Of a stretch of 64,000 bases of DNA, positions 52,831 to 57,850 are shown piece after piece. The stretch's first letter is position 1. Every line of letters starts with the position of its first letter. The stretch lies in contig NZ_CP065383.1 of NCBI RefSeq assembly GCF_015775515.1, positions 682,001-746,000 on the forward strand. Reading direction: 5' to 3'. Source of the DNA: Atribacter laminatus (GTDB taxonomy: Bacteria; Atribacterota; Atribacteria; Atribacterales; Atribacteraceae). The position numbers and the translations under genes are program-made. The notes beneath the pieces are model-generated. The model had not been told where the DNA came from. It did not search any database and saw nothing but the letters and a program-made list of their open reading frames with translations.

Positions 52831-52894
52831 CTGATTTCTCAGTATCCTCACAGTATGGGTTCTCATGCCGTATTTCAGAAACAGATAAGGATGA

Positions 52895-53157
52895 AAAAGC
52901 TATCTAAATCCGTCATTGCGAGGAGGTCAACCGTTTTTTGGTTGGACGACGTGGCAATCTCATTTATTCGAATCAATGAGTAGTAATAAGTGAAATGTGA
53001 ACCGAATAAAAGAAGCAGCAAGTGTTGATAAAAACGACAATCCAGTGTTTCTTTTCCCAAAGACCTGAAGATCTCATTTTGAAAATAATTTTGAATTAAA
53101 AAAAGAAAAAATATGACATCCTCACACCCTCGAAAAACCAGGGCTCAGGATGACAGA
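52895..53157. repeat. Two intergenic inverted-repeat units between converging genes
   Basis: The first unit (about 52905-52964) reads CCGTCATTGCGAGGAGGTCA, a small hairpin (CAACCG/GGTTG), then GACGACGTGGCAATCTCAT. The second (about 53110-53157) reads GACATCCTCACACCCTCG ... AGGGCTCAGGATGACAG. Both types recur at 14505-14680, 44845-44930 and 63630-63720. The gap between the two convergent genes (52831-53244) holds nothing else. Confidence 0.6.
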
Positions 53158-53244
53158 TTAAAGAATTCATTTTATGGTCTTTTCAGAATAGATTGGTTTA
53201 AGCACTTAGAAGAACCATATAACTAAAGGTTTTCCTAACTATAA

Positions 53245-56200
53245 CTATTGAACAGAGATAGCTGGTATCTTTACTGCCTGAATAATATTTGGATTAGAAA
53301 TATGGCGAACTAAAACCAACCCCTCGCTTTTTCCTTGGTAGGTTCCCTCAACTTCTAGCACCATTTCTCGTGCACCACGAAATGGTGCTGTTATCATTTG
53401 CATTTTTACTCCACCTAATGTCTTCTGACCATAAATAATTTGCCCTTTATAATCCGAAAGGAGATCGGTTGTTTGACGTATCGAAAGTACTGAGGGAGCC
53501 ACAACCAACGCATAATATTCAGAAGGGTCTTTATCATAATCAAGTTCAATTCGAATTGTACCTTCCTCACCCACTGAGAAATAATTCCTACTAGTTGTTA
53601 CCGAGAAAAACGGCTTTTCATCAGTGAGATAATGAAAGAGGCTAATAGATTCATTGCGATCTGCCTGATAAATTACATAATTTGGCGATGTTAATTTAAC
53701 GGGAACCTCTATTGGTTCCAATACAAAGGGTTTATCTCCCAAAGAGGTTGTTTGAGTTTTGCCATCCATTTCCAAATGAAGAACTGGATTGGCCAAAATA
53801 TCATTTTTTTCCATCATCAAAAGGAGTAACTCTAAGAATTTAACCATGGTATTTGGCGAGGAATAGACTCCTCCTAAAAGGGCAGGTCCTTGTATCATTC
53901 CCGGATCTTGGGTGAGAATCATTCCTTTGGCAATTGTCTTGAATACTTCATAAAAGCGTGGATCATTCTGTAAAAACAAAGCTTTGGCATTTAACAAGAG
54001 ATAATAATAAACTCCGCTTCGCTCAAAAGCTCGGAGAAATCGGTAGGTATCGTAAGCAGTTATGAATTTTAAATTTATATCCCGCATATTCTTTACTGGA
54101 GCATCGAAATATACTGGCCAAATTTTTTCCACAAACCAATGAACGACAGCCTTATCGGTGATGGTTTTATAAACTACCTTCCCATCAATTTCAATTGGAA
54201 TCAAGTCGTTTTGATTTTCTTCAGGATCAAAATAACCTTCTTCTTTGATTGGATAATGTCTTTTCTTCAACTCCGCGATGATTATGTTTACAAGGTTTTG
54301 GGCTTTATCAAGGGTTGGTTCAAGTTCTTCCATCAATTTTGAAGAATTTTTCAAGGCAGAAATCATAATGGATAAATTTTTCATTACCCAAATACTCCAA
54401 AGTGGTTCTCCTTTTAAACCAGGATATGGTGCTATTAAATTTGAAGAGGTATCCATAAAAACACTATCAAGGTCATTAACCCCCTTTATTACTTCAGAAA
54501 TGAGAGTTTTTGCCATTCCTTCGTCGTCAATCAAATTTTTCTCTATAGCAGTTAAAAGCAATGCCCTTAATGCACATGAGGCGCTAACTGCTTCAGCATG
54601 ACCAAACCAGGAATAAATATTGGTTTCTATCGTAGTAACCATTCCTCGCAGAAGCTGAGCCGGATTGGAGAAGGCAGCTATCCTCCGATGTGGTTCAATA
54701 AGAACTGGATTCCCTTCTGAGACGAAAATATCGGTAAATGTCGTGGGGAAAGACTCTACATTATGAATTTCAACAACTCGTTGATCAAAAATTTTTCCCT
54801 GGGTGCCAAGAAGTTCGAAGAGAAGCGAACCATAATTTTCCCCGGTCATTTGAAAGGATGGATTTGTGGTTCCTGGCTCAATGGTAAAGGTAACTGGTTT
54901 GGCTAGTCCTGCTCCTGAAATTTTCAAAATTAAGCTATTTAGCTCAGTATTAACCACCTGAATTTGGGGATTCAGCATTGCACCTGGTATTATAATATTA
55001 GGGAAATCCACCTCAATATAGTTCTTTTTTTGTACGTCAATCATTTGAGTTTTTTCTTGATAATCAAATTGATCAATGACTACTACTCTAGCGGTACAAC
55101 GACCTATTTGTGGTGGTAATTCGACCAGAATTTTTGCTTTTCCTCTTTGATCGGTTTGAAATATCCCGCAATAAACAACCTTCTTTTCTCCTTCCCGAAT
55201 TGTCTCTTGAGGTACAGATTCAGTCGTTATATTTATTTCTTCGCTAGCTGAAAGTGCTGATAAAGGAGTTTCCATTTTATAGTCATCAGCAGTTGATGAT
55301 GGAGCTGCAGCATCTTTACTCATAAATAAAGTAGCAATTTGATTTAGCAATCCTTTTGCGGGCCTCTCTTCTCGAATGATTCCGGTCCAATCTCTCCAAG
55401 AAACCAGATAATTAGAAAGATTTCGGAATGAATCGCCTAAAGCAGAAATTAAAGGCTCCCGTGGACTTTTGGAAGCAACACGATTATCGAAAACCTCTAA
55501 AATACCATAAGCCAAAAGGGGATGATGATTAAAGCGATCAAAAATACTAATTTCGATAATGCTTTTTTGCAGGGGATGACCTTCGTTGGGAATCTTTATT
55601 CCAATATCGAAAGTCGTTTCAGTAAATATCATCGCCCACCCTTCAAAAATTTCAGCTTGGTTCTCAATAAAACCACCTATGGCTATAAAAGTCATTGGAG
55701 ATTGAACATCTAATAGAATTTTTTGGCCCTTATCCAGTGTTTCATTAATTTTTACCTCTTCAACTTGAAAATTTCCTTTTTTATCAGGAAAAAGAAGAAA
55801 TAAACGGGAATTGATAATTTTTTGTTTGATTTGTAATTCTAATTTTTGGTTTTGGTTGGTAATAACCGATGGCAATTCAACAGGATCCTGATCCTGGTGT
55901 TCCCCTTCTATTACATAAAGTCCTCTCCCCAATAGAGGTGTCGATTCCTGATAAGGAGCTAATGAAACACTAAAACTATTTGTTAATCTTGAAGAAACTG
56001 GTATGGCCTGCCGTTCAATATGACCCGAACGGCTAAATAAATATCGGATAGTCCCCTTTTCAGTAATAACCTCAATTTCAAAAGGACCAGAATGCCCACC
56101 AACATCAAGGACTGTTTCAAGCTGACCCTTTTTTATATCAATATATACCGGTGGTCCTGCTTCAATGCCATCACAACCGGGAAGATAACACCTGCTTTTT

Positions 56201-56844
56201 ATAACCGCTTCACCCTCAAAGGGTTGATTGAAAATTCGTATTTCATTCTTGACATTCAAACCATTACCCCAGCGCAATCCGGCTCCGGCAGCATTTCCTA
56301 AAAACCAAGCCCCCAAGGTGCTACCTAATTCTTCCGCACTGGTCACTTCTTTAAAATCATGAGCAAAGGATACTGCTCCCAAAGCACCTTCAACCACTGA
56401 AAATGATGCATATCCACTTAAAGAACCATCTTCTGAATGAACTTCAATACGATATTCACCGGCTTCAAGCTTTTTTTCCTTTCCACTCAGAATGGTTTCA
56501 ACTAATATCCCAGCTTCATTAAGAGTCACGGGTCCAATTTCCTGTGGGGTTGAATCCTTTTTTTGAAGTAGGAGATTAAAAGATGAATGTGGTCGAATAG
56601 GGCATATCAGCTTTAAATGAACCTCTTCATTAGTCCAATAGATGGGCTGGTCGGTTGTAACTGAGATAAAATTTAAAGCAAGAGAAGAAACTACATCTTT
56701 TTTCAATGAAATAATTTTCTGAGTTTCCGCATTTATTTCAAAAAGAGCTGTTTCCTTTGATGAATCCTTTTTAGCCCAAGCTTCTTGCAAAATGAAAAGA
56801 TAAAAGACCAAAAAAACTATAATCCCAATGAGCTTCATATTCAT
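53245..56844 (-). CDS. Alpha-2-macroglobulin-like protein lacking the thioester
   Basis: This is a 1199-aa exported protein with a signal peptide at about residues 1-24, an MG2-like domain near the N-terminus (SVTTDQPIYWTNEEVHLKL), a macroglobulin core with a variable middle region (about 505-560), the A2M segment FQTDQRGKAKILVELPPQIGRCTARVVVID, and a C-terminal helical repeat region. At the position of the GCxEQ thioester the sequence reads GHAEA (748-752): His for Cys and Ala for Gln. Covalent trapping of proteases is therefore not expected. It lies divergent to a metzincin-like lipoprotein. Confidence 0.8.
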   Translation of the reverse strand: MNMKLIGIIVFLVFYLFILQEAWAKKDSSKETALFEINAETQKIISLKKDVVSSLALNFISVTTDQPIYWTNEEVHLKLICPIRPHSSFNLLLQKKDSTPQEIGPVTLNEAGILVETILSGKEKKLEAGEYRIEVHSEDGSLSGYASFSVVEGALGAVSFAHDFKEVTSAEELGSTLGAWFLGNAAGAGLRWGNGLNVKNEIRIFNQPFEGEAVIKSRCYLPGCDGIEAGPPVYIDIKKGQLETVLDVGGHSGPFEIEVITEKGTIRYLFSRSGHIERQAIPVSSRLTNSFSVSLAPYQESTPLLGRGLYVIEGEHQDQDPVELPSVITNQNQKLELQIKQKIINSRLFLLFPDKKGNFQVEEVKINETLDKGQKILLDVQSPMTFIAIGGFIENQAEIFEGWAMIFTETTFDIGIKIPNEGHPLQKSIIEISIFDRFNHHPLLAYGILEVFDNRVASKSPREPLISALGDSFRNLSNYLVSWRDWTGIIREERPAKGLLNQIATLFMSKDAAAPSSTADDYKMETPLSALSASEEINITTESVPQETIREGEKKVVYCGIFQTDQRGKAKILVELPPQIGRCTARVVVIDQFDYQEKTQMIDVQKKNYIEVDFPNIIIPGAMLNPQIQVVNTELNSLILKISGAGLAKPVTFTIEPGTTNPSFQMTGENYGSLLFELLGTQGKIFDQRVVEIHNVESFPTTFTDIFVSEGNPVLIEPHRRIAAFSNPAQLLRGMVTTIETNIYSWFGHAEAVSASCALRALLLTAIEKNLIDDEGMAKTLISEVIKGVNDLDSVFMDTSSNLIAPYPGLKGEPLWSIWVMKNLSIMISALKNSSKLMEELEPTLDKAQNLVNIIIAELKKRHYPIKEEGYFDPEENQNDLIPIEIDGKVVYKTITDKAVVHWFVEKIWPVYFDAPVKNMRDINLKFITAYDTYRFLRAFERSGVYYYLLLNAKALFLQNDPRFYEVFKTIAKGMILTQDPGMIQGPALLGGVYSSPNTMVKFLELLLLMMEKNDILANPVLHLEMDGKTQTTSLGDKPFVLEPIEVPVKLTSPNYVIYQADRNESISLFHYLTDEKPFFSVTTSRNYFSVGEEGTIRIELDYDKDPSEYYALVVAPSVLSIRQTTDLLSDYKGQIIYGQKTLGGVKMQMITAPFRGAREMVLEVEGTYQGKSEGLVLVRHISNPNIIQAVKIPAISVQ

Positions 56845-57226
56845 AAATAAATTCTCCTCCTTGAAAATAGGTTATGCAATACTAATCAAGAGTAATCAAA
56901 AGTGTAAGTGGCTGTGAGACTAAATGCGATTAATACGATATGATTGTATATCCTTGTGGTATAAAAGTGGTTTCATAAGAAGTTGTTTTCGATATAATAT
57001 GAGCATAAATATTCAATTAAAAATATTGTAATAAGCTGAATACGCTGAAAATAAAATCAAAAAATCATTTTTTTGGCTGATGGAATAACAAGTATTCGAG
57101 GTCTAAGACCACTCATTCTGTTCTAATTCTTAGCTTTATTTCTCTAGGTCTCGATGGAATGTAACTATTAATTGGAATTAAAATAACAACAGCCGTTAAA
57201 GTGAACGGTTTTGGGGATGGAATAAT
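56845..57226. promoter_or_regulatory. Divergent intergenic region between A2M-like and metzincin-like genes
   Basis: Both genes read outward from these 382 bp, so promoters for both must lie here. A GGTATAAAAGTGGT stretch at about 56958-56971 closely resembles GGTATAATAGTGGT at about 63782-63795, possibly an extended -10 element on the plus strand. No hairpin or other gene was seen. Confidence 0.35.
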
Positions 57227-57850
57227 ATGAAGAACCGATTATTAAAATATCTTCCTTGGCTCACTCTCGTTTTTCTTTCTTTCATTATTTCCTCCTGCAT
57301 ACCAAGCTTATTCCAGTTTGAAAATCTTCCAGCCTACTTTTTACCAAACCTTCCACCAATTGACACCGATGCTGATGCTTTGGTTAAAAAATATGGTTGG
57401 GATGAAAATTATGTTACCCGTTGGCCTAATGGCATTGTTGAAGTTTTTGACATGTCTGGATATCCTTATATTCAAGAGATTCTTAACATATGGAATGAGG
57501 TGATTGGAGGGCCAACCTCTTTTTACCTCAGTCTCAATCCCTTAAGCCCAATTATCATAACCGTTGATTATAGTCTTAATTTATTCCAAAATTGTGGATA
57601 TGCTGAAGTTTATATTGGGAATGATTCAATGATATACGGAGCAACAATTTTCATTTTACCTGACATAAATTTATGTCCTACCTATGCTACTCTGCTTCAT
57701 GAATTTGGTCATGTAGTTGGTTTTGGAGGACATACCAATGATGGATGCGTTATGGATCCAATAAATCTCGGGAATACTCATTTAAGCGAGTCAGTTCTTT
57801 CTATGGTTCATCGTTTGTATCAACTTCCAATCGGAAGTTATTTACCTTAA
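57227..57850 (+). CDS. Metzincin-like zinc metalloprotease, predicted lipoprotein
   Basis: This 207-aa protein has a lipoprotein signal peptide (LVFLSFIISSC, lipidated Cys24) and a zinc-protease motif near the C-terminus, HEFGHVVGFGGH with His158, Glu159, His162 and His169, then a Met-turn-like CVMDP with Met176. Metzincins have HExxHxxGxxH; here one extra residue precedes the last His. Matrixin-like proteins are the nearest family. It is probably anchored at the cell envelope, facing the periplasm or outside. It is divergent from the macroglobulin-like gene and 46 bp before an SDR operon. Confidence 0.75.
   Translation: MKNRLLKYLPWLTLVFLSFIISSCIPSLFQFENLPAYFLPNLPPIDTDADALVKKYGWDENYVTRWPNGIVEVFDMSGYPYIQEILNIWNEVIGGPTSFYLSLNPLSPIIITVDYSLNLFQNCGYAEVYIGNDSMIYGATIFILPDINLCPTYATLLHEFGHVVGFGGHTNDGCVMDPINLGNTHLSESVLSMVHRLYQLPIGSYLP

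What the first reader, a model, noticed from the sequence alone, without database searches (positions are those of the whole stretch)
53245..57850. Thioester-less macroglobulin divergent from a metzincin-like lipoprotein
The A2M-like protein has GHAEA in place of GCxEQ, so both the thioester Cys and Gln are gone. Across a 382-bp divergent region lies a lipoprotein with a zinc-protease motif. Bacterial macroglobulins often pair with penicillin-binding proteins; a protease partner is unusual and may form a surface processing or inhibition pair.
Basis: partly seen in the sequence, partly recalled or inferred. Interest (0 to 1): 0.55.

Follow-up and report, generated by a model that had tools for sequence, protein, structure and literature searches.

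The report
Thioester-less macroglobulin beside a metzincin lipoprotein
A bacterium of the phylum Atribacterota carries a second, stripped-down relative of the protease-trapping macroglobulins next to a small zinc-protease-like lipoprotein; both are real and have long been neighbours, but relatives keep either one without the other beside it, so they are probably not an obligate pair.

Summary
In detail: a secreted 1199-aa macroglobulin-like protein (53245-56844, -) has GHAEA at the presumed thioester position and no CxEQ anywhere; 382 bp away, divergent, is a 207-aa lipoprotein with HExxHxxGxxxH and a Met-turn (57227-57850, +). Macroglobulin identity is supported by profile comparison and, weakly, by a modelled thioester domain; a variable bait-like stretch is kept.

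The pair reading is only partly supported. The pair recurs in G001, the deepest genus member in a one-gene tree, but G005 keeps the lipoprotein with no such macroglobulin found, G002 has lost the macroglobulin and most of the lipoprotein there, and a second macroglobulin sub-lineage sits elsewhere (G002, G003). The lipoprotein family is in 22 of 50 phylum genomes.

Best reading: an additional, compact, thioester-free macroglobulin acting as a non-covalent protease trap in the envelope, as shown for Type II macroglobulin MagD, but outside a mag operon. Known kind, new variant.

Unexpected: the firm macroglobulin-peptidase pairing in this phylum is at the other locus. The thioester-type macroglobulin is followed by a secreted HExxH peptidase-like gene in 15 of 15 genomes where its 3' end is visible.

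The parts
53245..56844 (-). compact macroglobulin-like protein, 1199 aa
   Evidence: open frame; profile match to classical A2Ms
56773..56844 (-). signal peptide, residues 1-24, ending AWA, no lipobox Cys: secreted, not a lipoprotein (read by eye)
   Evidence: sequence
56395..56661 (-). MG2-like beta domain, residues 62-150
   Evidence: Pfam MG2, E 0.053, below cut-off
55186..55404 (-). bait-like stretch, residues 481-553: no strands in the (poor) model, one short helix, and poorly conserved
   Evidence: identity in the 40-residue windows 481-520, 501-540, 521-560 is 0.32, 0.18, 0.45 to G008 and 0.55, 0.50, 0.62 to G001
54940..55176 (-). A2M (PF00207-like) domain after the bait, residues 557-635
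   Evidence: hhalign to classical A2Ms of the phylum, E 1e-6, probability 91
53740..54699 (-). thioester-domain-like helical domain, residues 716-1035 as modelled
   Evidence: model pTM 0.64, pLDDT 58; nearest chains by VIA-align are C3, C4, C5, CD109, TEP1, A2M, Z about 11
54589..54603 (-). GHAEA in place of GCxEQ, residues 748-752
   Evidence: GHAEA in G001 and GHSEA in G008
53248..53607 (-). C-terminal beta domain, residues 1080-1199
   Evidence: secondary structure of the full model; several ten-residue blocks between 1081 and 1199 have mean pLDDT 66-85, others 37-58
56937..56976 (-). conserved element 93-132 bp upstream of the macroglobulin start; probable promoter or operator
   Evidence: at the same distance upstream of the G001 copy and, at 78% over 40 bp (E 0.02-0.03 each), of the G003 and G002 copies; also at the macroglobulin-less sites of G005 and G002
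57227..57850 (+). metzincin-like lipoprotein, 207 aa
57227..57298 (+). lipoprotein signal with Cys24 (read by eye)
   Evidence: sequence
57698..57754 (+). HEFGHVVGFGGHTNDGCVM zinc motif and Met-turn, residues 158-176

Best explanation
The large gene encodes a compact, secreted alpha-2-macroglobulin that has lost the thioester but kept the order bait, A2M domain, thioester-like domain, C-terminal domain. Most likely it stands in the envelope as a non-covalent protease trap: an intruding or self protease cuts the bait stretch, the molecule changes shape and holds the protease, as shown for the thioester-less Type II macroglobulin MagD. It is an accessory, second macroglobulin beside the classical thioester-bearing one. 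The lipoprotein is a member of a separate family of metzincin-like lipoproteins spread over the phylum and is a long-standing neighbour, not an obligate partner. Shown here: gene structure, missing CxEQ, homology of the A2M domain, variable bait-like stretch, presence and absence of the genes in relatives. Inferred: secretion, trapping, envelope location, the helical domain being a true thioester domain, lack of functional coupling.
For: No CxEQ in the protein. The domain after the bait aligns to classical A2Ms (E 1e-6); with relatives from another phylum added, the profile aligns over 604 columns (E 3.6e-10), and one of those relatives passes the Pfam A2M cut-off (27 against 21 bits) and keeps CCEQ. 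25 of the first 26 VIA-align rows for the modelled helical domain are A2M- or complement-family chains. Two of the three windows over the bait are the lowest of all windows to G008. The classical A2M is also found in 4 of the 5 genomes with this protein (G000, G002, G003, G008), and in the fifth, G001, its C-terminal part was seen. MagD traps a protease without a thioester (PMC5764988, abstract and passages read). Lipoprotein without macroglobulin in G005, macroglobulin without lipoprotein beside it in G002 and G003.
Against: Trapping is not shown. The helical domain is too divergent to align by sequence to the classical or other-phylum domains; its fold match rests on a weak model (pLDDT 58), Foldseek gave nothing at E 0.001 or better, and VIA-align warns that Z below about 13 can be a common helical arrangement. 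The 604-column match may be carried mainly by the other-phylum rows. The full-length model is poor (pLDDT 43.8). To G001 the lowest window is not the bait but 1021-1060 (0.47, beside its frame change), and 301-340 is also low to G008 (0.35). The copies in G001 and G008 are interrupted, from sequencing errors or from relaxed need. MagD needs mag operon partners for stability, and none was recognised near this gene.
Confidence: 0.57

Rival explanations
1. A two-gene envelope system: the lipoprotein peptidase cuts or is held by the macroglobulin (processing or inhibitor pair).
For: Adjacency in G000 and G001, which lie across the deepest split of a one-gene genus tree; both genomes with the G000-type copy keep the lipoprotein beside it (2 of 2); 382 bp shared divergent region; in G002 both are damaged at the site.
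Against: G005 keeps an intact lipoprotein with no macroglobulin of this family found. The sister sub-lineage in G002 and G003 has other neighbours. The lipoprotein family is in 22 of 50 phylum genomes, the compact macroglobulin in 5, and 19 of the 22 show no compact macroglobulin at all. Divergent genes need not be co-regulated.
Confidence: 0.17
2. A macroglobulin-derived scaffold that no longer traps proteases but guards or organises the envelope, for example against peptidoglycan-cutting attack.
For: Thioester lost; MagD protects P. aeruginosa against some peptidoglycan-targeting type VI effectors by an unknown mechanism (PMC12663445, passages read); the longest block identical in the three sequences that cover it, 22 residues, lies in the helical domain, as if that domain binds something.
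Against: A block of 20 identical residues lies in the N-terminal half too. The stretch most variable to G008 sits at the bait, which suggests that cutting still matters. No attack system was looked for.
Confidence: 0.17
3. A decaying accessory gene with little present function.
For: Patchy: 5 of 61 genomes; absent from the site in G002 and G005; interrupted in G001 and G008; several neighbourhoods.
Against: Intact over 1199 codons in the single-contig window genome; long identical blocks between relatives; conserved upstream element.
Confidence: 0.09

Closest known systems
Type II bacterial macroglobulin MagD / mag operon (P. aeruginosa; PMC5764988, abstract and passages)
   Same: macroglobulin order with a bait but without CXEQ; exported
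   Different: no mag-operon-like genes among the neighbours read and shorter (1199 aa); the two sequences were not compared directly. Loss of the thioester may be independent, since a distant relative of the compact family keeps CCEQ (G386) and others have CAEE and CEQE (G177, G388)
Type I bacterial macroglobulin ECAM/YfhM (E. coli; PMC4498604, passages)
   Same: macroglobulin domains, bait, thioester-domain-like helical part, C-terminal domain
   Different: it has the CxEQ thioester and is often in an operon with pbp1C; here no CxEQ and no penicillin-binding protein among the neighbours read
Classical A2M of the same genome (L044:7076-11530, about G000:C1 269,075-273,529)
   Same: same superfamily, A2M domain aligns
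   Different: 1484 aa, PYGCTEQ intact, between a DUF1175 gene and a HExxH peptidase-like gene
Archaemetzincin (M54) and matrixin (M10) metzincins
   Same: HExxH, Gly, third His and Met-turn; weak local profile matches
   Different: one extra residue before the third His, below all curated cut-offs, a lipoprotein signal at the N terminus

Membership tests
alpha-2-macroglobulin superfamily | A2M (PF00207-like) domain following a variable bait stretch | tested here: met
   hhalign of residues 472-699 and relatives to 13 classical A2Ms, E 1e-6, probability 91; bait-like windows lowest to G008
alpha-2-macroglobulin superfamily | alpha-helical thioester domain between beta domains | tested here: inconclusive
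   order beta-alpha-beta in the poor full model; helical model resembles A2M and complement chains at Z about 11, but no Foldseek match at E 0.001 and no sequence match of the domain
alpha-2-macroglobulin superfamily | curated Pfam cut-off of MG2 or A2M | tested here: not met
   MG2 14.3 against 32.8 bits, A2M not listed; a distant relative passes A2M. A model score, not a biological property
thioester-bearing (Type I) macroglobulin | CxEQ thioester motif | tested here: not met
   no CxEQ in the protein
Type II (MagD-like) macroglobulin | lacks CxEQ but keeps a bait | tested here: met
   that the stretch acts as a bait is inferred
Type II (MagD-like) macroglobulin | lies in a six-gene mag operon | tested here: not met
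   Pfam on neighbours: response regulator, GGDEF-HD protein, SDR, cyclase, G6PD in the window; DUF488 (G003), UvrD helicase (G002), ABC transporter and DUF123 (G008). Mag proteins themselves were not searched for
Type II (MagD-like) macroglobulin | non-covalent retention of the cutting protease | not testable with these tools
   needs purified protein
metzincin peptidases | HExxHxxGxxH zinc site | tested here: not met
   here HExxHxxGxxxH, one residue longer; of 18 aligned family members with HExxH, 17 have this longer form and one (L023, G009) the canonical spacing
metzincin peptidases | Met-turn after the third His | tested here: met
   CVM, Met176; that it forms a Met-turn is inferred
archaemetzincin M54 | cysteine pattern of the second zinc site (recalled from memory) | tested here: not met
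   only one Cys at or after the zinc motif; 17.2 against 24.4 bits

The most novel reading that the evidence does not exclude
Atribacterota house a macroglobulin next to a secreted metallopeptidase more than once: a thioester-type one with a downstream HExxH peptidase-like gene, and a thioester-free one divergent from a metzincin-like lipoprotein. The peptidase would be a dedicated bait-cutter or a stored cargo that arms or is held by the macroglobulin: a bacterial self-triggered trap assembled twice from unrelated parts.
Probability: 0.1. Interest if true: 0.72.

Novelty: new variant of a known kind. Interest (0 to 1): 0.4.

Why it matters
It adds a compact, thioester-free macroglobulin family outside a mag operon, with distant relatives in another phylum that show the thioester site intact or altered, so it can be asked directly what a macroglobulin does without its covalent chemistry. 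It also points to the place in this phylum where a macroglobulin-metallopeptidase pairing is really conserved, namely the classical locus.

Tried and rejected
Direct sequence searches of solved structures with the large protein, singly and as a profile, found nothing. Archaemetzincin PF07998 over the 50 phylum genomes rang in one (G031) and not in the window genome. The full-length model was too poor to search with, so only the helical domain was. The multiple alignment with the other-phylum relatives did not place their CCEQ, CEQE or CAEE over GHAEA, and hhalign of the domains did not either; the correspondence rests on position in proteins of like length (748 against 728-760) and on the start of the second helix of the model. 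I considered that the macroglobulin had recently inserted next to the lipoprotein and think loss more likely: its upstream element survives at both macroglobulin-less sites and G001 has the pair; recent gain is not excluded. I asked whether HExxH proteins of that kind outside the phylum also lie beside macroglobulins: nine of the strongest matches, those that had been given loci, had no macroglobulin or DUF1175 within the roughly 1.5 kb held on each side. Rfam found nothing over its thresholds in the window. No paper of the library holds both 'macroglobulin' and 'Atribacter'; two hold 'DUF1175' (listing only); a search for bacterial macroglobulin with metalloprotease, operon and thioester (at least three of the four) listed, among the ten shown of 104, only PMC5764988 on bacterial macroglobulins.
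Full report
What is there. The window lies in a single-contig 3.10 Mb genome (G000:C1:682001-746000). At 53245-56844 (-) is an open frame of 1199 codons and at 57227-57850 (+) one of 207, 382 bp apart and divergent. The large protein begins with a signal peptide ending AWA and has no lipobox (by eye); it has six cysteines, none followed by xEQ, and GHAEA at 748-752. The small protein has a lipobox-like ISSC and HEFGHVVGFGGHTNDGCVM.

Is the large protein a macroglobulin? Pfam gives only a sub-threshold MG2 match (14.3 against 32.8 bits) and PDB sequence searches give nothing. Against 13 classical macroglobulins of the phylum (of 22 loci), residues 557-635 align to the A2M domain that follows the bait (E 1e-6, probability 91; with the full alignment E 4e-5, probability 69). 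A search of 386 genomes with the family profile found 7 with a match: the five known carriers and two genomes of another phylum, G177 and G313; 4 of 5 genomes of that phylum carry relatives with open frames of 1137-1158 aa. One of these (G386) passes the Pfam A2M cut-off, 27 against 21 bits, while G388 stays below it at 17.8 and G177 has no Pfam match at E 0.1. G386 has CCEQ; G177 has CAEE and G388 CEQE at a like position. With them in the profile the match to classical macroglobulins covers 604 columns at E 3.6e-10, though those rows may carry it. The full-length model is poor (mean pLDDT 43.8) but shows beta domains, a stretch without strands at 481-553, beta domains, a mainly helical part at 728-1012 and a C-terminal beta domain. 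The helical part alone was modelled with pTM 0.64 and pLDDT 58; Foldseek found no match at E 0.001 or better, its best being CD109 at 0.047, but 25 of the first 26 VIA-align rows are C3, C4, C5, CD109, TEP1 or A2M chains (Z 10.0-11.5). Z of that size can be a common helical arrangement, so I count it as support, not proof. GHAEA falls at the start of the second helix of the model. The helical domain itself aligns by sequence to nothing tested.

Bait. In 40-residue windows the two lowest identities to G008 are 501-540 (0.18) and 481-520 (0.32). To G001 the same windows have 0.50 and 0.55; only 1021-1060 is lower than both (0.47, next to its frame change). Neighbouring windows reach 0.95 (441-480) and 0.80-0.85 (541-600) to G001. 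G003 does not cover this part. That is the pattern expected of a bait, but it is not a test of cutting.

History of the neighbourhood. Macroglobulin relatives: 5 of 61 genomes, all in the same family. G001 has the same divergent pair (75% and 83% identity), though its macroglobulin frame has a stop and a frame change (its contig record notes coverage 4.6); its contig is 4641 bp and holds only these two genes, so the wider site is not seen. G005 (98% complete) has the lipoprotein at 88% identity and no macroglobulin match; homology starts at window 56921, just upstream of the macroglobulin start, and its two contig ends overlap by 31 bp in the right orientation, giving about 825 bp between response regulator and lipoprotein (the 31 bp could be part of a repeat). 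G002 lacks window 52898-56920 and 57065-57734 at this site, that is the whole macroglobulin and lipoprotein codons 1-169. G002 and G003 carry a macroglobulin elsewhere, 92% identical to each other over 61 aa and apart from the G000 and G001 copies, beside a UvrD-helicase gene and a DUF488 gene. In G008 only about 215 bp upstream of the gene are on the contig, so its upstream neighbour is unknown, and no lipoprotein match was found in that assembly. In G003 and G004 the SDR gene that follows the lipoprotein starts at a contig end, so the native site is not seen. A tree of the HExxH peptidase found next to the classical macroglobulin, with the distant G008 as outgroup, puts G001 outside the other five genus members. 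A 40-bp element 93-132 bp upstream of the macroglobulin recurs upstream of the G001 copy and, weakly (78% over 40 bp, E 0.02-0.03), of the G003 and G002 copies at the same distance; it also lies at the macroglobulin-less G005 site and within the stretch kept at the native G002 site. I read this as an old pair of neighbours from which the macroglobulin was lost in G005 and G002, with a second macroglobulin lineage elsewhere.

The lipoprotein. Relatives occur in 22 of 61 genomes, all 22 among the 50 of the phylum; 19 of the 22 have no compact macroglobulin match. Of 27 sequences examined (the window's and 26 others; L028, a fragment, and L036, interrupted, were left out) 18 keep HExxH and 9 do not; one of the nine, L026, has unread bases in that region. 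Of 29 matched places 17 have open frames of 304-496 aa; among 21 sequences scanned 4 match a carboxypeptidase-regulatory-like domain, 5 PEGA and 2 PKD (long members were cut to 260 aa). I did not read the neighbours of every member.

The other macroglobulin. The genome also has a classical one with PYGCTEQ, between a DUF1175 gene (E 1.1e-61) and an overlapping downstream gene for a 221-aa protein with HELFH and EEG, here called GLU. PF00207 rings in 22 of 50 phylum genomes; I looked at 21 of these (not G015) and added G001. Sixteen are of this type; the other six are longer (1714-1791 aa) and distant. GLU follows the macroglobulin in 15 of the 15 whose 3' end lies on the contig; in G026 the contig ends inside the gene. 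DUF1175 precedes it in 13 of 13 of the 15 loci read in that direction whose 5' end is on the contig. GLU at E below 1e-20 is found in exactly those 15 of the 50 phylum genomes; weaker matches occur in 126 of the 336 other genomes searched, as expected of a general peptidase fold. HExxH and EEG are invariant in 12 sequences. Its NCBIfam and PDB matches are weak. That DUF1175 belongs to the mag/yfa operon is recalled, not looked up.

Mechanism. MagD, a thioester-less macroglobulin, is cut in its bait and keeps the protease without a covalent bond (PMC5764988, abstract and passages); it also protects against some peptidoglycan-cutting type VI effectors (PMC12663445, passages). By analogy the window protein most likely is a non-covalent trap in the envelope. 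It does not lie in a mag operon as far as its neighbours were read. The lipoprotein may meet it there, but loss and gain of either gene alone argue against a fixed pair.

Verdict. Observation confirmed; pair interpretation partly supported; a new variant of a known kind, of moderate interest. On re-checking, the bait evidence to G001 proved weaker than first written, so the confidence in the trap was lowered slightly, from 0.58 to 0.57, and that in decay raised from 0.08 to 0.09.

Noticed in passing
L044:6436-7098 (-) and L044:7079-11530 (-), i.e. G000:C1 about 268,435-273,529: The classical thioester macroglobulin overlaps a downstream gene for a secreted HExxH...EEG peptidase-like protein; this order holds in 15 of 15 phylum genomes where it can be seen and looks like the truly conserved macroglobulin-metallopeptidase pairing.
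   Followed up: partly
L092:367-3840, L091:1420-4830, L055:6731-10147: Compact macroglobulin relatives in a second, small phylum (5 genomes held, 6.6-10.8 Mb) show the thioester site intact (CCEQ) and altered (CEQE, CAEE).
   Followed up: partly
L082 (G006): A classical macroglobulin reads YPYRGSEQ, with Gly where the thioester Cys should be: possibly another loss inside the family, in a draft genome.
   Followed up: no
L016, L020, L021, L022, L024: Members of the metzincin-like family in more distant Atribacterota lack the zinc motif (for example HSFSGIAGF in L016) but keep the rest of the domain: probably inactive homologues.
   Followed up: no
window 52831-53244; L059 1-318; L038 1-238: The stretch after the response regulator looks repeat-rich by eye in the window genome, G005 and G002 (copies not counted); contigs of G003, G004 and G005 end near here.
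   Followed up: partly
L042:15581-15688 (G002): Remnant of the lipoprotein gene: only codons 170-205 match beside the SDR gene.
   Followed up: yes
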